NCBI GenBank assembly: GCA_020186115.1
Contig: WSYJ01000140.1
Coordinates: 310,001 to 374,000 of the forward strand
Origin: Histomonas meleagridis
Lineage: Eukaryota > Parabasalia > Tritrichomonadida > Dientamoebidae
DNA: 64,000 nt
Direction of reading: 5' to 3'
Shown: positions 5,462 through 48,646 of the stretch, piece after piece
Numbering within the stretch: the stretch's first letter is position 1
Layout: the number at the start of each line of letters is the position of its first letter
The notes under the pieces: generated by a model
Told to the model about the DNA's origin: nothing
Databases searched by the model: none
Seen by the model: only the letters and a program-made list of their open reading frames with translations
Program-made: the position numbers and the translations under genes

Positions 5462-7290
5462 CTAAAGATCCTTTGAATTCACATTCTTTTCTTTTTGCTC
5501 AAGTAGTAATTTGGTTATTTCCATGTGATCGTTTGAAGTTGCATAATTAACTGCTGTTTTAAATATATGAATTAATTTCCAAATGTTATTTTAAAACACT
5601 ATATTATTGGAATTAAGATTCAATATAATAAATAAACATCTTTAATGTTGCAATCAATATCTTTTTGTTTAAGAAGCAATTTAACAATTTCAACAGAACC
5701 TTTAGCAGATGCATAAATAAGTGCTGTCTTATAAATTTTTTTTTAAAATTCCAAATTTTATTTTGAGAAATCAAATTATTTAAACAAATTATTTATATAA
5801 CAAGTAATCATCTTTCTCATTTATATCAATTTTTCGATGTGTAATAAGCAATTTAACAATTTCAATAAATGATAGTTTTGATGCTATAATCAGTGCAGTT
5901 TTATAAAACTAGAAAAAAATCCAAATATTATTTATGAATATCAATTTGTTAAAAGAAATATTAAATAATATGGTTGTATATTTTTAGAATTAACATCAAT
6001 ATTTTCATGTTTGAGTAATAATTTAATAATTTCTTTGTTATCTAAATATGTTGTAATGATAAGTGCTGATTTATATCATATGAATAAATTCCAAAAGTTA
6101 TTTATTTACTTCATTTTAAAAAAATAAATATTTTACAAAACAAATAAACATTTTTAAGATTAACATCTATACTTTCTTGTTCAAGTAGCAATTTAATAAT
6201 TTCATAATGACTATTTTTACATGAACATATAAGTGCTGTGTCAATTAAATTAATCAAATTCCCAATATTTATTGAATATACAAAATTATATGATAAAAAT
6301 CCAGGAAATAAAATAAAACATTTTTTATATTAATATCAATATCTTTATGTTTTACAAGTAATTTTACATTTTCTAAATAACCATTTGAGCATGCATGAAT
6401 AAGAGCAGTTTCAAACATATTAAATATATTTGTTTTTATAGAAATAAACATAAAATCTTATATATTAATACTACATAAAACAAATAAATATTTTTAGCAT
6501 TCACATCAATTCCTTCTTGTTTTAGAAGAATTTCAGTAATTTCTTTAAATCCATTTTGACAAGCAAACATAAGAGATGTTCTAAATTATTTAAGGAAATT
6601 CCAAAAAACCTTTTTAAATTAAAAATTATTGAAATAAACACTAAAAAATAATTATTTTATATTTTTAGCATTAATATCAACTTCTTTATGTTTTAGAAGT
6701 AATTTTACTGATTCAGTATCTCCAGATCTACAAGCATAGATTAATTCAGTAAAAAAAGTTTTGAATAAATACTAAACAAACTTAAGGAACAGAAAAATAA
6801 ATTAATAAACATTAAATAAAATTTATAATTATCTTTCATATTAACTTTTATACCTTTTTGATTTAAAAGTAATTCTACAATTTCGGGATGATGATGTGAA
6901 CAAGCTTCCATAAGTGCTGTATGAAAAATTTTAAATAAATTCCATGATTTATAATGAAATCCAAAATGTATTGATATAATATCAAAAACTTTAAATTTAT
7001 ATCTTGTTCATTTATATTAATTCCTTTTTGATCAAGAATTAATTTAACAATTTCGATATTATTGCCTTTGCATGCTATCATAAGTGCTGTACTAAATAAT
7101 TTACAAAAACTTTAAATTTTATATTAAAATTGGGAATGATTTAAGAAATATTTAAATAAAATAAAAAAATACTTTTTGCATTTATATCAATAACATTTAA
7201 ATCAAGAAGTATTCTAACTACTTCAAGTTGATTCTTTTCTATAGCAAACATAAGAGGGGTTAGAAATAATATGAAGAAACGCCAATAAAA
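5462..7290 (-). repeat. Array of eleven ankyrin units with spacers, about 170-bp period
   Basis: On the minus strand, the Thr/Ser codon opening each ankyrin unit recurs near 7260, 7093, 6920, 6750, 6575, 6410, 6240, 6065, 5900, 5725 and 5555. Each coding block is about 90 bp, then a spacer of about 75-80 bp. Several spacers carry TTTGGAATTT or a close variant about 26 nt before the next block. Confidence 0.75.
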
Positions 7291-8519
7291 ATGTTAAATC
7301 ACCAAATAATTGTTACAAATATCAAAATTAAAAATAAAACATAAATCTTATTTAAATCGATTTTTCCATTTTCTTGTATATATTTTACAAGTTCATAATT
7401 TCCAGATTCGATTGCTAAAAAGAATAATTTTTCATTAATTTGACCATTTGTAAAATGTTTTATTAAATATAAATTTCCGCATTTAGCAAATGTTTCAAAG
7501 AGTTCATTAGTAATAATCATTTTTTCATCTTCCAAAAATGAAAAAATTTCATAATTATTATATATTACACATTTTTTTCCTAATTCAGTTAAGTCATCAA
7601 TTTCAATGATTTTATTTTCATAAAGATAATGAAAGACATTATTTTGATGATACTCAATTGCTGTTTCATATGCATCTTTAAATAGTGAATGATTTTGTTC
7701 ACATAAATGAATAATTTCGAGATTTCCACCTGCAACAGCATATTTCCCAATACTTATTAAATTTGAACCATTTAACATTAAAAATTTAAAACATTTTATT
7801 GATCCAAAAAATGCTGCGTAATCAATAAGGGAAACATCATTTTGATTAATCATTGTACACTTTTCATAAAGCGATGGTTCAATTATTTGATTAAAATCAA
7901 AATTTGTTTTCGATGATATTTCTTGAAGTTTTTCTATTTCATCATTTCGTATTACATTTACAATTTCATTTGGATTAACACCATCTTTAACAAGTTTTTT
8001 CTGTAGTTTCCAATCTTCTTTTTGAAGCTCTTCAATATTTTCAAAGAATTTTTTCCAAAATTTATTTTTGAATTTGGTTTGAGCTATTTCTGTATTTGTC
8101 ATATGTTGTGCAAAATATAAATCTTTAGAATCATGAAAAATTATTGGATCTGCTAATTTTTGCTCAATCATCATTTCAAGAAGATAATATGATTCTTGTG
8201 ACTTAAAGTGTAGAAGTAATTGTATGAAAATATTTTTTAATTTATGGGAATATATTTCTTTTGAATCAAATAATTTCAAATAACTTAAATATATATTAAC
8301 ATTTTTTTGCTGTGACATAAATGAAAAATATATCAACTGACAAATAGTTAAAGAGAATGAATATGGATAATTTCCATCAAAAAGATCTAAAGTTAACTTA
8401 ACTGAAGTATCTATATTTGATTCTTTTAGATCAAATATAATATGTTGTAATGAAATTAGTAAATTTCCATACTGTTTATTATGATTTGGTTCTTGATTCG
8501 AACATTTGGAATCTTTCAT
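5462..8519 (-). CDS. DUF3447/ankyrin-repeat protein gene with per-repeat spacers
   Basis: The N-terminal exon-like part (8519 down to about 7330) is a continuous frame resembling the trichomonad DUF3447 domain: conserved SLIDYAAFFGSIKCFKFL, a YETAIEYHQNNVFHYLYE segment, and a first ankyrin unit SGNYELVKYIQENGKIDLN. Eleven further ankyrin units follow, each open and of the form TALIxACxxGxxEIVKLLLEQKGIDINAKN. AT-rich spacers with stop codons separate them, at a period of about 170 bp. The last unit ends VNSKDL and TAG at 5462-5464. I take the coding sequence as discontinuous, joined by splicing of the spacers; boundaries are not resolved. The start at 8519 is chosen over 8636 because an Inr TTTCATA directly precedes it and because it matches the homologue at 12601. 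These proteins are of unknown function. Confidence 0.6.
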
Positions 8520-8861
8520 TATGAAATTTTGAATTGCTAGATTTCGTAAATCATACAAAAAATAAAAGTGTACTAAGCCAACAACATCAATTTTATAAGG
8601 AACGTATAACAAATACAAAAAATTAGACACATACATTTGTCTGTCTTGATGATGCGTATTATTGTTGGATGATTTTATATGTGAATTTGTTCATTAATTA
8701 ATTTATGTATAAGTAAGTTCATTTAAATTTGATACAAAATATATTCTATTTAATCAGTACATGCTATTCTTACTCAGCATTAATATGTTTTTAATCTGAT
8801 TAAAAATTTTTCTCATTTCTTATTTCTTTTTTATTACCACCGTTTATAAACGGCCAAGCTA
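8520..8861. promoter_or_regulatory. Divergent promoter region, ankyrin gene / Ski2 gene
   Basis: 342 bp between two divergent genes. The notable element is the perfect palindrome CCGTTTATAAACGG at 8840-8853, ending 8 bp before the Ski2 ATG. It contains two Myb-like ACCGTT/AACGG half sites facing each other across TATA. The rest is AT-rich. Confidence 0.5.
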
Positions 8862-12600: not shown

Positions 12601-15600
12601 ATGGTGAAGTCAATGACACTTGAAGATCTCGAATCATTCCAAAAATTACTTGCAAACTTAAGCGAAGATAACTATGAAGAAGCTGTTGATTCTATAATGA
12701 AATTTTTTGAGCCATCTAATTCTTTTTCTTTCAATGATATGTTAAGTAAACTTGCATATTCAACGTTTGTTTCACAACATTCAATGGAGGATGCTTATTT
12801 ATCGTTTTTAAAATCACTTGCTTTAAAAGAATGCGAAATGAAGAACAGGAATTTTATTGTTGTTCGACTAGTAGAAAATCTTCTTCATCTCCAAACTCAA
12901 GAAGCATATTATATATTATATGAATTGATTGAAAATCATATAATTAATCCATTAGCAATTAAGAATACTGAAACCTTTTACTTTGCACAATATTTCACAG
13001 CTGAAAAAATTATATCATTAAAAGAGAACAGATTTGCTCGTCAATTTTTTTCGAATTTTGAAGATTTCTACAAAGATGGATGGAAGATTCAGAAAATCTT
13101 AATCGAAGAAGGTGTTAATCCATTAGCGATTGCAACAATGCTTCGAGAAGATGATATTGATCAGTTAAAAGAATTATCGAAAAATGAATATTTCAAATTC
13201 AATTCTAAAATCGAACCATTTCTTTATGAGAAATATTCATATATTAATAAGGATAATGTACCACTTATTAATTATGCCGCATTTTATGGGTCAATTAAAT
13301 GTTTTAAATTCTTATTAGAAGGAGGAGCCGAATTAAATGACGCAAGTAAATTTGCTGTTATTGGAGAAAACGAAGAAATCATTGAAATATGTAAAGGAAA
13401 AAATGCATCTTTCGAAGGTACATATGAAGTTGCTATCGAATATCATCGAAATGATATATTTAAGAAACTTTTCGAATCTAAAATTGCCGAAGTGAAAGAT
13501 ATAAATAAATTAGGCGAAGAATGTATTGAACATAGCAATTATGAATTACTTTCATATTTACTTAAAAATGGATTAAAAGTTACAAGTATGCTTATAAATA
13601 AATCCGTGGAAACAGGAAATTTATATTTAACGAAGATTTTGGCCGAAGGTAATAAGATTCCGAATGATATATTACCTTTAGCTATGGATTCTGATAATAT
13701 GGATCTCGTTCTATATTTAGTTGAACAAAATGGTATTGATATTAATGCTCGTGATATTAATTTTTATATTTTTAATGTTTATTTTAGTTTTTTAATATTA
13801 AATAATAATTTTTGGAATTTGTTTAATGATTTTGAAACAGCTTTAATGTGGGCAGCTGAAAATGATTATGTTGATTTAGCTAAATTACTTCTTGAACATA
13901 AAGAAATTGATATTAATGCTAAAGCTGTTAGTTTTTATATTTTTAATGTTTATCTTAATGATTGAAAATTTCAATGTAATATTTGGAATTTATTTAAATT
14001 ATTTGATACAGCTCTTATGATATCATCTGGTTATGGATCAACTGAAATAGTGAAATTGCTTCTTCAAAGAGAAGGAATTGATCTTAAAGCTAAAAATGTT
14101 TTATTTTTTGTTATGATGATATTTTAAAATAATATTTGGGATTTTTTGATATTATTTTGGACACCATTATTACTTGCATCTCGTTATGGTCATGTAGAAA
14201 ATGTTAAATTACTTTTAGATGCTGGATATGATGTTAATGAAAAGAATATTTGTTTATTATATTTGATGTTTAATTTAAAATTTTGAAGTTTTGGTATAAA
14301 ATTTGGAATTTGTTCAAATTATTTTATACACCACTTATCTATGCAGCTTGGCATGGACATACTGATGTTGTTAAATTACTTTTAGAACAAAAAGGTATTA
14401 ATATTAATGCACAAAATATTTATAAATTATATTTATTGTTTGTTATGATAATTTTATATTTACTAAAAATATTTGGAATTTTTTTAACTTATTTTGGACT
14501 GCAATTCATTGGGCATTCTCAGGATTTTGCAATGGCGGTATGTCAAATCGTGTAGTTATTGATTTACTATTAGAACAAGATGGAATTAATTTGACTCTGA
14601 AAAATATTAAAAATTTTTATTTAAAGTTAATTTTATTGATTTGAAGTTTAAAAATAATTTTTGGAATTTCAAAATTATATTTTTTACACCATTAATGTAT
14701 TCATGTCAATTAAAATCATTAGAACTTGTTAAAAAAGTTATCGAAAAAGGTGATGATGTTAATGCAAAAGATTTTTCATTTATTAATTTAAAATTTAAAT
14801 TAATATTATGAAGTTTTAATATATAATTTGGAATTTATTTAATTTATATTGGACACCAATTATGATTGCAAGTTCTATTGGTGCTAGTGATATTGTTCAA
14901 TTCCTTATTGAACAAAAAGGAATAAATATCGAAACAAAGAATATTTTTATGTATATATTTTCTGTTTCTTTTTTTAATTTAAAGTTTAAAGTTTTGTTTT
15001 GGAATTTATTTTTATTACTTGAAACGCCTTTCATTACTGCATGTAATTGTGGAAAAGTTGAAATCGCGAAATTACTTCTTGAACATGGCGCTAATATTAA
15101 TGCTAAAACTATTAAAATCAAATTTTTAAAATATGTTTCAATAATTTCAAGTTTCATATCAAAATTTGGAATTTATTTGTTTCATTTCAAACTGCTTTAA
15201 TGAGTGCATCGTTAAGAAATAACGTTGATATTGTTAAGTTTTTACTTGATCAAAAAGATATTGATATTAATGCACATTCTGTTTGGATGATTTATTTATT
15301 ATTTGTTTAAAATATTTCAAGTTTTTTATTAATTTTTGGAATTTGTTTAATATATTTTGGACTGCAGTAATTTACGCATGTATTAATGGTCGATGTGAAA
15401 TTCTTAAATTACTTCTTGAAAAAGGAATGGATGTGAATAAATTAGATATTATTTATTTAAATAATTTGATATTTATATATAAAATTTGGAATTTTTAAAT
15501 AATATTTTGGAATGGTTTAATGTGCGCATGTAAAAATGGTCATGTAGATGTAGTAAAATTACTATTAGCTCAAAAAGGAATTGATATTAACCATAAAAAC

Positions 15601-16482
15601 ATTTGTTAATATTGTTTAAGGTTTAACAAAAATATTTAAAATTTCATTTTAATTTTTAAAATTTATTTGAATTATATGAAACAGCTTTAATAATTGCAGT
15701 TATGTCGACTAAAGATGATAATGATAATTCAGAAATTATAAAATTACTTCTTGATCAAGATGGAATTGAACTTAATTGTGGAGATGTTCATTTCTTTTAT
15801 AAAGTTTTTATTAACACAATAAAATATTTATATAAATTTCATGGAATTTAAATGAAGAATTTGAAACAGCATTTAAGATTGCATGCGTGAAGAATAATAT
15901 CGAAGCTGTTAAATTGTTTTTAGCAAGAGATGGAGTCGATATTAATGCTGGTGATATTAAATATTAATCATTTAAAGTTTCGTTTAATATATTTTATGTT
16001 TTATTATTAAAAATAATGTTTTCTTAAATGATTTCAAACTCCTTTAATGGTTACGGCTAATCTTGGTTATCTTGAAATTACTAAAATGCTTCTTAATCGA
16101 AAAGAGATTAATGTAAATGCAAAAAGAGTTGATATTGATTAACGTTTTTATGGAGTTTATTAAAATGATTTACAACTGCATTAATGTTAGCTGCAAATAA
16201 TAATAGAGTTGAAATCGTGAAGTTACTTCTTGAAAGAGAAGAAATTGATACCGCAGCTAAAACACAGTTTATATTGTGCTTTCTGTTTAATTTATTTATT
16301 TCAAGTTTATAATTTATATTTGGAATTCATTTAATTGATTTTATAATGCGCTCATTTTCGCATTGAAAAATAAATTCGTTGATATTATTAAAATGCTTTT
16401 GGAACACGAAGGAATTGATATAGAACAATTTATTGCTAACTGTGAAAAAAAGTCACAACAACAAAATGATCAAGATGAATAA
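12601..16482 (+). CDS. DUF3447/ankyrin-repeat protein gene with per-repeat spacers
   Basis: The continuous N-terminal part (12601 to about 13755, some 385 residues) is a DUF3447-type domain related to the gene at 5462-8519: matching FYFAQYFTAEKI, VPLINYAAFYGSIKCFKFLL and YEVAIEYHRNDIF blocks. It ends in an ankyrin unit DINARD. Sixteen further ankyrin units follow from 13837 onward; all sixteen are open over their full length, while most spacers contain stop codons or change frame. The final unit runs into an EQFIANCEKK tail and ends TAA at 16480-16482. I read the gene as multi-exon with about 16 short introns. If unspliced it would stop at 13963-13965. ATG at 12601 follows an Inr (TCATTT); an in-frame TTG at 12595 is not needed. 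Function unknown. Confidence 0.62.
13755..16400 (+). repeat. Sixteen ankyrin units with AT-rich spacers, fixed motif
   Basis: The first codons of successive units (usually Thr) lie at 13837, 14008, 14161, 14328, 14498, 14686, 14853, 15024, 15191, 15361, 15511, 15681, 15866, 16038, 16175 and 16345. Spacings are 137-188 bp, mostly 167-172, and many are not multiples of three. In nearly all spacers TTTGGAATTT (or one or two changes) starts exactly 26 nt before that codon. The 5' end of each spacer begins ATT or GTT after the AAA-AAT/GAT codons. Confidence 0.8.
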
Positions 16483-18207: not shown

Positions 18208-18279
18208 GGGTGTGTAGCTCAGTGGTAGAGCGCTACATTTGCATTGTAGAGGCCTGGGGTTCGATCCCCCACACATCCA
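18208..18279 (+). tRNA. tRNA-Ala(TGC)
   Basis: 72 nt with discriminator A. Acceptor GGGTGTG pairs with CACATCC and contains the G3-U70 pair that marks alanine tRNAs. The anticodon loop TTTGCAT gives TGC. D and T arms are complete (T loop TTCGATC). A T-run follows. An identical gene lies in the opposite orientation at 23141-23212. Confidence 0.95.
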
Positions 18280-18727
18280 TTTTTTCAATTTTTTGAATTT
18301 CTGAAGAGATTTAAATTAAAAGTTTATGGCGCACTTTTTGAGCAAAGCGAAAAGATCTAAGCAGTAAAAAAAAAATTTTATTTTTGTAATATTTATATTA
18401 TTCGTAAGCAAAAGTGGTATAATTTTTTTTTCTGACCAGTAATCAAGTAAAGTACTGAAAAAGTTAGTCAAGAATAAATATTTTTAAGAAATTAATCATA
18501 AAGTTAAAAAATGCGTTTCTTCTTGTAATTATGAAATATATTTATTTAGAGAAAATGATGAAAATATTTATGAGTTAAGAGAAGCATTAATATATTTTTC
18601 ATCAAATGCTTAAAGAAATCATTTATCACTTCATTGGAATTGATGTATATGCTTGGTTTATTATTGTCATATAAACGATAAAAAATGATTCAAAATTTCT
18701 AATTAAAACTCAAATTTTTTAAAACTC
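18280..18727. other. Intergenic region
   Basis: AT-rich and low complexity. T-runs just after the tRNA can serve as Pol III terminator. No gene seen. Confidence 0.4.
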
Positions 18728-19828
18728 ATGTCTCTTCCGCCCTCTGTCAGTCAAGAAAAATTTCATTCCATTATGCAAAACCAAGGCAAATACTTAAAAG
18801 AGGCAACGCTCCTTAAAAATACAATTTTCAATTTGAATAACAGTTGATCCTCGAGGATGTGATATAGATTTGGTTCTTCAATTTTTATCTGAAATTGGAA
18901 AGCATTTTAACAAAAATGATTTGAACATTTATAATATTTTTGTGATTATTTTAAAAGGATTTTTTTTACGAGATGGATCTAATTATCTTTTGGAAAAGAT
19001 GATCGAAGAGAACATTATTTCTATTAAAGTTATTGAATCTATTAATTCATTATATTTTATACATTACAAAACTGAAAATGAAATCAAAAAATTAAAGCGT
19101 GATATACCAAATCAAGATTCTTTTTATGATACAAAAATAATTGATGTTAATAATTTGATATTTCAAAATAATATTTGAAATTTATTTATGTTATTTGAGA
19201 CAGCACTTATATATTCATTGGAAAATGGCTATACAGAAATAGCTAAATTACTTCTCGAACAAAAAGGAATTGATGTTAATGCCAAAAATATTTATTTGTT
19301 TTATTTTATATTTATTTCAATAATTTTATATTTCAAAATAATATTCGAAAATTATTTATATTATTTAAAACAGCACTTATGTGGGCATCTGGAAAAGGCT
19401 ATATAGAAATAGTTAAATTACTTCTTAAACAAAAGGAATTGATGTTAATGCCAAAAATATTTATTTGTTTTAATTATAATTTATTTTAATAATTTACTAT
19501 TTCAAAATAATATTTGAAATTTATTTATGTTATTTGAGACAGCACTTATATATTCATTGGAAAATGGTCATACAGAAGTAGTTAAATTACTTCTTGAACA
19601 AGAAGGAATTGATATTAATACTAAAAATATTTATTTGTTTTATTTAAAATTTATTTTGATATTTTGCTATTTCAAAATAATATTTGAAAATTATTTATAT
19701 TATTTAAAACAGCACTTATGTGGGCATCTGAAAATGATCATACAGAAGTAGTTAAATTACTTAAACAAAAAGAAAATGACAATAACACGAAAAAAGTTTA
19801 TCATATTAAATATATAAATAAAAGATAA
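18728..19828 (+). pseudogene. Broken DUF3447/ankyrin copy
   Basis: Starts with an ATG frame of 39 residues that ends in TGA (18845-18847). A different frame follows from about 18849 to 19178, with DUF3447-like helices (a SNYLLEKMIEENIIS segment). Four ankyrin units then follow in near-identical pairs. The second unit lacks one A in its AAACAAAAGGAATTG stretch and is frameshifted. The N-terminal domain is much shorter than in the genes at 5462 and 12601, lacking the middle part. The last unit ends in a Lys-rich tail and TAA at 19826. I infer a decayed, recently rearranged copy; the spacer layout is the same as in the intact genes. Confidence 0.6.
19161..19828 (+). repeat. Four tandem ankyrin-plus-spacer units, 169-170 bp each
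   Basis: TTTCAAAATAATATT recurs at 19161, 19331, 19500 and 19670. Units 1 and 3, and units 2 and 4, are almost identical, which points to a recent 339-bp duplication of a two-unit block. Since 170 is not a multiple of three, adjacent units are in different frames. Confidence 0.8.
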
Positions 19829-20394
19829 ACCTTAAATATATTTCGACTAGTAAAAGTAAATTTTTGTAATCATTTTTTCATATTATTATATTTTTGATTT
19901 AAATAACATTAAAAGTTATTGTTCATTATCTTATAAAATAAGGAAATTAAAAGAATCAATGAGGCTTAAACGAAAAAAATTTGATAAAGCCACATTTGGT
20001 GCATCCTAATACAAATTTCCTGTTAAGTTAACTTTTTAAATTGATACTTTCCGTTTCACGACACAAACAATATTTAAATTTTCATGTAACAAAACGATAT
20101 ACACTTGACTCGCCCAAATTCGTAATTATATGAGAGGTGGTGATATGTTCCATATATGTACGGTTTTTATTACTAAATTAAAAGATATAAAGGTGAAAGT
20201 CTTTTATGGCACCTCCATTAATTTTAGTTGAAATGTGTTAATATTCTTTTTAAATAGTTTCTAGCCAAAATATTAACTTCATAAATATAAACATTCATTT
20301 AATTTTCATGAAGTATTTACATTCTCACTGCTGAGCCTGACTGATTATACATTCACCTAAAATTTACATTATTTAAGCTTCACATTTTATTCAT
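19829..20394. other. Intergenic region
   Basis: AT-rich DNA downstream of both the broken ankyrin copy and HSP70. It contains TACGGTTTTT near 20159. No gene or RNA recognised. Confidence 0.4.
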
Positions 20395-47404: not shown

Positions 47405-48013
47405 TATGAAAGCTCTTGAAGAAATCAATAAATTCAATTCGAATATAAATGTATTTATACAATCAATTGATTAAGCTTAAACATTTTAATGTAGAATCAA
47501 ATTATTGCTCTATCATATTTTCAAGAAGATAATGAATTGTGCTAAACTAAATAATTCAGTAAATATGCCATAGCTGGAGTAAATGAAGAAATCATTCATT
47601 TATGTGAACAAAATCATTCATCATTTGAAGATACATATGAAACAGCAATTGAATTTCATCTAAATGATATCTTTAAATATCTTTATGAAAATAAAATAGA
47701 AGAAAAATCAGATAATGATTTGATAGTTTATTGTATTCACAGTGGAAATTATGAAGTTCTTTCATTTTTGAAAGAAAAAGGAATGATAATTAATGATAAT
47801 ATCATTAATGAAACAGCAAAGATTGGAAACTTATATCTTATTAAACATTTTGTCAAAAATACGAAAATTCCAAAAAATATTTTAATTTTTGGTGTAGAAT
47901 CAGGTAATGTTGAACTGGTTAAATATATTCTCGAACAAAATGGAATTGATATTAATGCTAAAGATATTTATTTGTTTTATATGATATTTATTTATGGGGA
48001 TGTCTTGTTATAG
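47405..48013 (+). pseudogene. Truncated DUF3447/ankyrin copy
   Basis: A degraded start (ALEEINKFNSNINVFIQ at 47405-47470) is followed from 47555 by an open frame that matches the DUF3447 segment of the intact genes (KYAIAGVNEEIIHLCEQNHSSF, then ETAIEFHLNDIFKYLYE, then GNLYLIKHF). It ends in the first ankyrin unit, GIDINAKD, and the beginning of a spacer (IYLFYMIFIY). No later ankyrin units exist: the MULE terminal repeat begins 12 bp after the stop. The N-terminal 170 residues are missing. Likely disrupted by the transposon. Confidence 0.65.
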
Positions 48014-48065: not shown

Positions 48066-48220
48066 CGAATATTTACCCTGTAAAAACCAAATTTTGACAA
48101 TATGTCATTTTGATAACGTCGATATTCAATGAAGTTTTTGTGAAAATTATTTAATTGGCGCTTAAACAATTTATTTTGGATTGTTGACAATGATAGCTGA
48201 TCATTTCAGTCAGCAAACAA

Positions 48221-48646
48221 TTGTTACACATTCATTACGTGGAGATAATAAATATACCAACATTTTAGTTCAGAATGAAAATTTTTGGTTATCGAATATA
48301 TTCGAAACAAATTTCTCTAATATTATAAGATTGTTATACATTCATTACGTGGAGATAATATATATACCAAAATTTTAGTTCAGAATGAAAATTTTTGGTT
48401 ATCGAATATATTCGAAACAAATTTCTCTAATATTATAAGATTGTTGTACATTCATTACGTGGAGATAATAAATATACCAACATTTTAGTTCAGAATGATA
48501 ATTTTTGGTTATCGAATATATTCGAAACAAATTTCTCTAATATTATAAGATTGTTGTACATTCATTACGTGGAGATAATAAATATACCAACATTTTAGTT
48601 CAGAATGATAATTTTTGGTTATCGAATATATTCAGAACAAATTTCA
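48221..48646. repeat. Tandem repeat, 3.9 copies of 110 bp
   Basis: Copies begin at 48221, 48331, 48441 and 48551, each starting TTGTTRYACATTCATTACGT. The copies differ at a few positions and contain the near-palindrome TATCGAATATATTCGAAAC. The array is subterminal in the MULE, just past the transposase stop, and may be subterminal binding sites for the transposase. Confidence 0.85.

What the first reader, a model, noticed from the sequence alone, without database searches (positions are those of the whole stretch)
13755..16482. One ankyrin repeat per exon, separated by frame-breaking AT-rich spacers with a fixed 26-nt motif
Seen directly: in the plus-strand ankyrin gene all sixteen repeat units after the N-terminal domain are fully open, while the spacers between them carry stop codons and change frame (distances between first codons of successive units are 171, 153, 167, 170, 188, 167, 171, 167, 170, 150, 170, 185, 172, 137 and 170, many not multiples of three). 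TTTGGAATTT (or near match) begins exactly 26 nt before the Thr codon in at least ten consecutive spacers, although the spacers' 5' parts vary in length. Random decay would not keep every repeat intact while letting spacers drift. The best explanation is splicing of many short introns. They lack the known trichomonad intron signals (GTAYGT and ACTAACACACAG) and a consistent AG before the exon, so this may be an undescribed intron class or RNA-processing route.
Basis: partly seen in the sequence, partly recalled or inferred. Interest (0 to 1): 0.88.

Follow-up and report, generated by a model that had tools for sequence, protein, structure and literature searches.

The report
Seventeen-base introns splitting ankyrin repeat linkers
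In the genome of a poultry parasite, the short turns between repeats of ankyrin proteins are cut up by as many as four 17-letter stretches that must be removed to make the protein, leaving coding pieces of a single codon; this fits none of the known intron kinds tested here.

Summary
The genome is Histomonas meleagridis (assembly match). Each AT-rich spacer between ankyrin (ANK) units is not one intron but up to four 17-nt elements, roughly R-TTT-N9-A-TTT, separated by single codons. With the elements removed, the spacer gives the missing ANK turn: D-(17)-N/K-(17)-D/N-(17)-Gly-(17)-x-Thr. The fixed TTTGGAATTT motif contains that Gly codon.

In 217 linkers I compared observed with expected stop codons at 65 testable offsets. 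Only three fell below P = 0.001, all of them predicted micro-codons (0 vs 8.2, 14.1 and 28.1). The fourth predicted codon is Gly in 172 of 217. All 15 unit distances in the finding follow from 17- or 18-nt elements plus whole codons.

None of 864 elements can be read as GT-AG, although six kinase introns of the same genome are GTATGT...CTAACACAYAG. I extrapolate about 8,000 elements genome-wide. Removal is inferred: no RNA data were available, so splicing (most likely) is not separated experimentally from translational bypass.

The parts
12601..13755 (+). N-terminal exon (ATG; 385 codons, DUF3447/ANK), ends ...ARD at the first element
   Evidence: Open frame and Pfam; 13 of the 45 arrays with three or more recognised exons have 271-427 open codons with an ATG upstream, three of them cut by the edge of the sequence
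13756..13836 (+). Linker 1: elements 13756-13773, 13777-13793, 13797-13813, 13817-13833; codons N,N,G,E
   Evidence: Segmentation
13927..14007 (+). Linker 2: elements 13927-13944, 13948-13964, 13968-13984, 13988-14004; codons N,K,G,D
14098..14160 (+). Linker 3 (three elements, one absent): 14098-14114, 14121-14137, 14141-14157; codons D-D,G,W
14248..14327 (+). Linker 4: elements 14248-14264, 14268-14284, 14288-14304, 14308-14324; codons D,E,G,Y
14418..14497 (+). Linker 5: elements 14418-14434, 14438-14454, 14458-14474, 14478-14494; codons I,Y,G,W
14606..14685 (+). Linker 6: elements 14606-14622, 14626-14642, 14646-14662, 14666-14682; codons K,E,G,F
14773..14852 (+). Linker 7: elements 14773-14789, 14793-14809, 14813-14829, 14833-14849; codons K,E,G,W
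14943..15023 (+). Linker 8: elements 14943-14960, 14964-14980, 14984-15000, 15004-15020; codons S,K,G,E
15111..15190 (+). Linker 9: elements 15111-15127, 15131-15147, 15151-15167, 15171-15187; codons K,Q,G,Q
15281..15360 (+). Linker 10: elements 15281-15297, 15301-15317, 15321-15337, 15341-15357; codons I,Q,G,W
15448..15510 (+). Linker 11 (first element absent): 15451-15467, 15471-15487, 15491-15507; codons I,D,G,W
15601..15680 (+). Linker 12: elements 15601-15617, 15621-15637, 15641-15657, 15661-15677; codons K,K,K,E
15786..15865 (+). Linker 13: elements 15786-15802, 15806-15822, 15826-15842, 15846-15862; codons S,N,G,E
15956..16037 (+). Linker 14: elements 15956-15973, 15977-15994, 15998-16014, 16018-16034; codons K,Y,N,Q
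16128..16174 (+). Linker 15 (two elements): 16134-16151, 16155-16171; codons V-D,G,T
   Evidence: low score 7.9
16265..16344 (+). Linker 16: elements 16265-16281 (weak), 16285-16301, 16305-16321, 16325-16341; codons S,Q,G,Y
16345..16482 (+). Terminal exon, last ANK unit and C-tail ending in TAA
5462..8636 (-). Second gene of the same build: N-terminal open frame 7299-8636 followed by 11 ANK exons (5474-7260) and a stop; its first linker was not segmented
18720..19830 (+). Third, apparently decayed copy: four ANK exons (one with a 1-nt deletion, 19370-19457) and an N-terminal part broken by a frame change (by eye)

Best explanation
The gene at 12601-16482 is an ankyrin-repeat gene. Its 16 repeat-to-repeat turns are interrupted by 60 intron-like elements, 54 of 17 nt and 6 of 18 nt, with single-codon exons between them. 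Shown from sequence: the codons between the elements are protein-coding, the elements are non-coding, and element length is nearly fixed. Inferred: the elements are cut out of the pre-mRNA by a splicing reaction that recognises a purine plus TTT at the 5' side and ATTT at the 3' side at a set distance of about 17 nt. The mRNA then reads a continuous ANK protein (NAKD-N-D-G-x-T-A-L). Not shown: transcription, removal itself, and whether the spliceosome or another machine does it. The confidence given is for removal from RNA by either machine.
For: Stop scan of 217 80-nt linkers at the 65 offsets where at least 2 stops were expected: the only offsets with P < 1e-3 are unit positions 108 (0 vs 8.2), 128 (0 vs 14.1) and 168 (0 vs 28.1); position 148 has 0 vs 2.5 and is Gly in 172 of 217. 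Loci were chosen by the TTTGGAATTT motif, so I repeated it on the 175 linkers without that exact motif: again only 108 (0 vs 6.8), 128 (0 vs 10.7) and 168 (0 vs 22.2) are below 1e-3, and Gly is 130 of 175. Second, exon-anchored test on overlapping data: last codon before Thr 1 stop vs 33.0, third codon back 39 vs 36.5, n = 267. Gly codons vary synonymously, GGA 155, GGT 10, GGG 4 of 215. Segmentation: 305 of 309 linkers parse, mean score 29.9 vs -24.5 reversed and -28.6 shuffled; Gly in slot 3 in 228 of 294 single-codon slots, vs 2 and 8 of the 305 parsed reversed and shuffled linkers. Lengths: 1094 of 1177 elements are 17 nt. Linker lengths step by one element: 80 (219), 63 (15), 46 (1), 29 (1) of 309. 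Other ANK loci (L073, L074, L077, L078), read by eye, show turns with 0 to 3 elements of 17-19 nt. First base is a purine: G:T at position 1 is 46:9, 42:17 and 73:4 in slots 1-3, while at the other A columns of these slots T exceeds G in all but one. 365 of 376 near-full exons open.
Against: No RNA, protein or second-strain data were available. The segmentation uses residue and element preferences learned from the same linkers. Position 148 alone is weak on stops (P 0.08). Five non-predicted offsets show mild depletion: 137 (11 vs 24.1, P 0.0015), 114 (13 vs 26.3, P 0.0021), 134 (P 0.0065), 94 (P 0.015), 147 (P 0.017); I take these for neighbour effects. In slot 4 position 1 the purine bias is absent (G:T 14:17). 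dN/dS is only 0.51-0.81, highest in the closest pairs; 11 of 376 exons are broken and 4 linkers do not parse, so some arrays are decaying.
Confidence: 0.8

Rival explanations
1. Spliceosomal tiny introns with very relaxed signals: the ordinary U2/U6 spliceosome removes them, as in Stentor (15-16 nt). This is one of the two machines covered by the best explanation; its 0.35 is part of the 0.8.
For: U2 (2 copies, canonical GUAGUA) and a U6 with ACAGAGA are present. Fixed-length 15-16 nt introns exist elsewhere (PMC9505925, passages). TAATAAT in some elements could pair weakly with U2 (inference, not tested).
Against: 0 of 864 elements can be read as GT..AG, even after shifting the ends; CTAA[CT] in 7 of 860. 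Canonical introns of the same genome keep GTATGT and CTAACACAYAG, which alone take up 17 nt.
Confidence: 0.35
2. Translational bypass: ribosomes hop over each 17-nt element, as with mitochondrial byps.
For: Very short AT-rich frame-breaking inserts, many per gene; byps are a precedent (recalled; one search gave listings only).
Against: Bypass is thought to need matching take-off and landing triplets (recalled): the preceding codon equals the last triplet in 19 of 864. The gene would need about 60 hops.
Confidence: 0.1
3. Silent or decaying cassettes: the arrays are not expressed, and exon integrity is maintained by gene conversion from element-free genes.
For: Some copies are broken; dN/dS of the closest pairs is 0.81; element-free ANK repeats do exist in this genome.
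Against: Single codons between elements are kept stop-free and Gly-rich, which copying from element-free genes would not by itself do. ATG-to-stop architecture in a number of arrays. In the motif-selected loci and window, none of 316 neighbouring exon pairs (within 300 nt) is at the element-free spacing of 99-102 nt.
Confidence: 0.05
4. DNA-level elimination (IES-like): the elements are present only in a germline version of the genome.
For: Short AT-rich inserts of set length.
Against: No dimorphic nuclei are known in parabasalids (recalled); the assembly carries the elements.
Confidence: 0.03

Closest known systems
Stentor coeruleus tiny spliceosomal introns (15-16 nt)
   Same: Nearly fixed, extremely short length; many per genome
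   Different: Most Stentor introns start GU, end AG and have the branch A at a set place (PMC9505925, passages). Here R-TTT...ATTT, no GT-AG, and exons of one codon
Trichomonad type A/B spliceosomal introns (Trichomonas; canonical Histomonas introns)
   Same: Same lineage; type B are short (23-25 nt in T. vaginalis) with T-rich middles
   Different: They carry a 5' motif and a fused branch/3' motif, one or two per gene (PMC12316389, passages). The elements here lack both motifs and number about 60 in one gene
Euglenid and diplonemid nonconventional introns
   Same: Non-canonical borders, removal mechanism unknown
   Different: Those form stable structures joining the ends (PMC6221363, PMC4770533, abstracts in listing); here no clear structure or covariation in the linkers, and a nearly fixed 17-nt length
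Mitochondrial byp elements of Magnusiomyces (recalled)
   Same: Many short frame-breaking inserts in coding genes
   Different: Byps are longer, structured and flanked by matching triplets (recalled); no such match here

Membership tests
U2-type spliceosomal intron | GT at 5' end and AG at 3' end | tested here: not met
   0 of 864 elements from 80-nt linkers, ends shifted by up to 3 nt
U2-type spliceosomal intron | Branch-point motif pairing with U2 GUAGUA | tested here: not met
   CTAA[CT] in 7 of 860 elements; U2 keeps GUAGUA. Weaker pairings were not tested
U2-type spliceosomal intron | Removal by spliceosome seen as lariat or spliced cDNA | not testable with these tools
   No RNA data
Trichomonad intron (GTATGT...CTAACACAYAG) | Extended 5' motif and 11-12-nt 3' motif | tested here: not met
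   Absent from the elements (CTAA[CT] 7 of 860, GT..AG 0 of 860); present in six kinase introns of the same genome; CTAACACAYAG 87 vs 25 reversed control genome-wide
U12-type (AT-AC) intron | AT...AC borders (recalled) | tested here: not met
   AT..AC in 0 of 860; U12 snRNA not searched
Euglenid nonconventional intron | Stable secondary structure joining intron ends | tested here: not met
   RNAalifold of 217 linkers gives no structure; 60 single linkers, mean z 0.01; expected pairs between linker ends 3.0 vs 2.4 in shuffles; no distant column pair above the null maximum. Single 17-nt elements were not folded alone
Translational bypass (byp) | Matching take-off and landing triplets (recalled) | tested here: not met
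   19 of 864
Ankyrin-repeat protein | 33-34-residue repeats with D-x-x-G-x-T-P/A-L turns | tested here: met
   Pfam Ank_2 1.3e-16 on the first open frame; decoded turns carry Gly in 14 of 16 linkers of the finding

The most novel reading that the evidence does not exclude
Histomonas has a second, non-canonical RNA-splicing route that uses a molecular ruler to excise thousands of 17-nt R-TTT-N9-A-TTT introns and joins exons of a single codon. It works independently of the GT-AG signals used by its ordinary introns and is confined to ankyrin-repeat turns.
Probability: 0.4. Interest if true: 0.97.

Novelty: new variant of a known kind. Interest (0 to 1): 0.92.

Why it matters
If real, these are among the shortest introns reported (Stentor has 15-16 nt) and, as far as I know, the first with single-codon exons in long series. 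They lack GT-AG and a branch motif, in a species whose published annotation has at most one intron per gene (PMC8529796, passages). Either the spliceosome can work on far less information than thought, or there is an undescribed RNA-excision machine. The published annotation probably misses or breaks hundreds of ankyrin genes (extrapolation). The question can be tested directly on existing RNA-seq and proteomic data.

Tried and rejected

-1 frameshifting through the spacer: considered because 170 is 2 mod 3 and a TTTAAAA-like heptamer exists. Rejected because both flanking frames carry many stops inside the spacer.

RNA structure or covariation in whole spacers: no clear signal; the linker ends pair slightly more than shuffles (3.0 vs 2.4 expected pairs). 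Canonical trichomonad motif ACTAACACACAG: 3 vs 2 control; GTATGT...ACTAAC...CAG: 5 vs 19 control; GTAYGT...ACTAACACACAG with a gap up to 31: none. These were uninformative because the six introns seen here mostly end CTAACACATAG. U1 by Rfam: none at E <= 10. A pattern for spacers not followed by Thr gave six places, not studied further. Direct seed-rate estimate of genome count was meaningless and replaced. Exact pattern in prokaryote genome contigs and viral contigs: none. One search failed through a wrong filter and crashed. One search stopped on an error after the main table; the 5'-side table was then run, and the shifted-frame control was left unfinished but is covered. One search counted four unparsed linkers as parsed; one search has the right numbers.
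Full report
Identity of the genome. The window lies in G000:C76 of a 43.28-Mb, 121-contig genome. Contig C120 is 3,384,422 bases long, exactly the largest contig given for the virulent strain of Histomonas meleagridis in Palmieri et al. 2021 (PMC8529796, Table 1, passages seen; that table lists 187 contigs, so the copy held here is a somewhat different release). The paper reports 28% GC and says introns are scarce, 5.2-5.7% of genes having at most one intron. Gene models came from AUGUSTUS trained on a transcriptome (section 19 read).

All 16 units of the finding are open and the 15 distances are as written. TTTGGAATTT occurs 19 times in the window against 2.0 expected; 10 of these lie in the region at the stated place. 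Genome-wide the motif plus a following Thr-like codon pair occurs 403 times against 5 for the reversed pattern. All but 7 of the rows in the capped list have exactly 16 nt between the two parts, although 10-20 were allowed.

Sampling. I fetched 40 loci around motif hits, which with the window make 244.7 kb. An exon profile found 383 open ANK exons and none in reversed sequence. Neighbouring exons are 170 nt apart in 206 of the 316 pairs within 300 nt. A DNA-level profile blind to frame found 502 exon matches, 417 at E < 1e-3 and 376 of these near full length; 365 of the 376 are open and in phase, while substitution alone at the spacer rate would leave about 21% open. Spacers between such exons number 309. 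Their mean pairwise identity (0.64) is like that of third codon positions (0.62) and below that of second positions (0.78). Yet their length is 80 nt in 219 of 309.

The decisive step. Regions taken from the ANK family search showed turns with fewer inserts. In L074, for example, a turn reads D-K-F, a 17-nt insert, G, a 17-nt insert, K-T-P-L; another has a single 19-nt insert after D-I-K-G. In L073 a turn reads D-S, insert, A, insert, G, insert, Y-T-A, and another D-I-A, insert, G, insert, R-T-P-L (read by eye). This suggested that the 80-nt spacer is 17+3+17+3+17+3+17+3: four 17-nt elements and four codons, the last of which joins the next exon. I tested it on 217 80-nt linkers by comparing observed stop codons with the number expected from column frequencies. 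Of 90 offsets 65 had at least 2 stops expected. Three fall below P = 0.001: 108 (0 vs 8.2), 128 (0 vs 14.1) and 168 (0 vs 28.1), at the predicted places. The fourth predicted offset, 148, has 0 vs 2.5 (P 0.08) and encodes Gly in 172 of 217, mostly GGA with some GGT and GGG. Because the loci were chosen by a motif that contains GGA, I repeated the test on the 175 linkers without the exact TTTGGAATTT: the same three offsets, and no others, are below 0.001, and Gly is 130 of 175. The residues are N/K/E at the first, D/N/Y at the second, G at the third and K/E/N/W at the fourth: the ankyrin turn D-x-x-G-x-T. An earlier analysis made before this idea points the same way: the 15 strongest correlations between adjacent columns include 108-109, 128-130, 148-149 and 168-170, along with exon codons and two pairs inside elements (115-116, 159-160). 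Offsets 94, 114, 134, 137 and 147 show mild depletion (P 0.0015-0.017) but still carry 11-32 stops; I take these for neighbour effects.

What the lengths mean. With four codons (12 nt) and k elements of 17 nt the linker is 12, 29, 46, 63 or 80 nt. Observed: 80 in 219, 63 in 15, 46 in 1 and 29 in 1 of 309; many of the others differ by whole codons (77, 83, 60, 66, 86) or by one 18-nt element (81 in 17). A segmentation program parses 305 of 309 linkers: four elements in 268, three in 32, two in 4, one in 1. Mean score is 29.9 against -24.5 for reversed and -28.6 for shuffled linkers. Among 1177 elements 1094 are 17 nt, 38 are 18, 26 are 16 and 19 are 19. The program's residue and element preferences were learned from the same linkers, so the template-free stop test is the stronger evidence. 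In the finding itself the 16 linkers hold 60 elements (54 of 17 nt, 6 of 18 nt), and the Gly codon is Gly in 14 of 16.

The element. Pooled consensus is R-T-T-T-A-T-T-T-W-W-A-T-T-A-T-T-T, 91% A+T. Ends are better conserved than the middle in every slot (0.82-0.86 vs 0.72-0.75). At the first base, A changes to G far more than to T in slots 1-3 (46:9, 42:17, 73:4), whereas at the other A columns of those slots T exceeds G in all but one. Slot 4 does not show this (14:17). No element of 864 can be read as GT..AG even when the ends are slid, and CTAA[CT] is in 7 of 860. No clear RNA structure or distant covariation was seen in the linkers.

Contrast with ordinary introns of the same genome. The kinase family search listed 133 matches; 635 candidates were found and 132 scored, so badly interrupted kinases may have been passed over. 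Seven of the 133 have stops inside and a few are partial. I fetched six interrupted or partial ones (L079-L084). All six, read by eye, carry an intron GTATGTTTTT...CTAACACATAG (CTAACACACAG in L083) at the same place of the domain; CTAACACATAG also lies at the ends of, or inside, three more that were not fetched, on C27, C55 and C84. CTAACACAYAG occurs 87 times against 25 reversed. U2 has two copies with GUAGUA, and U6 (43.7 bits, just under the family cut-off of 44) has ACAGAGA; no U1 was found. So a normal trichomonad intron system exists, and the 17-nt elements look like a different class. Most kinase matches run through in one piece, which a 17-nt insert would break. In the sampled loci 265 of 284 spacer matches are directly followed by a recognised ANK exon, and by eye most of the other 19 by diverged or terminal ANK sequence. 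Families other than kinases were not searched for the elements.

Are these genes real? Of 58 arrays, the 45 with three or more recognised exons were listed. Thirteen of these have 271-427 open codons with an ATG upstream of the first recognised repeat (three cut by the edge of the sequence), and many end with a short last repeat and a stop. Pairwise dN/dS is 0.51-0.81, highest in the closest pairs, so constraint is moderate, and a minority of copies is broken. By extrapolation from 54 of the 403 motif sites the genome holds roughly 2,100 such linkers and 8,000 elements; arrays without the exact motif are not counted.

Mechanism. The codons between the elements are under protein-level selection, so the elements must be absent from what the ribosome decodes. 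Removal from RNA is the simplest route. The known classes fail the defining tests I could make: GT-AG and branch motif (spliceosomal), end-joining structure (euglenid nonconventional), matching triplets (bypass). I therefore favour a splicing reaction that recognises R-TTT and ATTT at a set distance. I leave open whether a relaxed spliceosome performs it (about 0.35), as it does with 15-16-nt GU-AG introns in Stentor (PMC9505925, passages), or a separate machine (about 0.4). No RNA evidence could be examined here.

Novelty. None of the listings of my ten searches of the open-access library showed a report of such elements; subscription papers and preprints were not searchable. I rate it a new variant of a known kind (introns), with the categorical reading kept as the novel case.

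Noticed in passing
G000:C78:376002-376739 (-): A kinase domain match lies in an open frame reported as 22,955 codons, a giant gene if real.
   Followed up: no
G000:C9:2518-24247, C84:1707642-1717695, C55:913585-915242, C53:618886-620502: CTAACACATAG recurs in clusters, often about 826 nt apart, suggesting tandem gene families that each carry a canonical intron.
   Followed up: no
L079-L084: Canonical Histomonas introns in kinase genes: GTATGTTTTT at the 5' end and CTAACACATAG (CTAACACACAG in L083) at the 3' end, at the same place in the kinase domain (by eye).
   Followed up: partly
window 47876-47959 and following 100 nt: A lone ANK exon followed by the start of a linker whose second element breaks off: a gene remnant (by eye).
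   Followed up: partly
window 48220-48645: 110-bp tandem repeat, 3.9 copies, 97% matches, just downstream of that remnant.
   Followed up: no
window 18210-18280: Sequence that by eye looks like a tRNA gene; the tRNA finder was not run.
   Followed up: no
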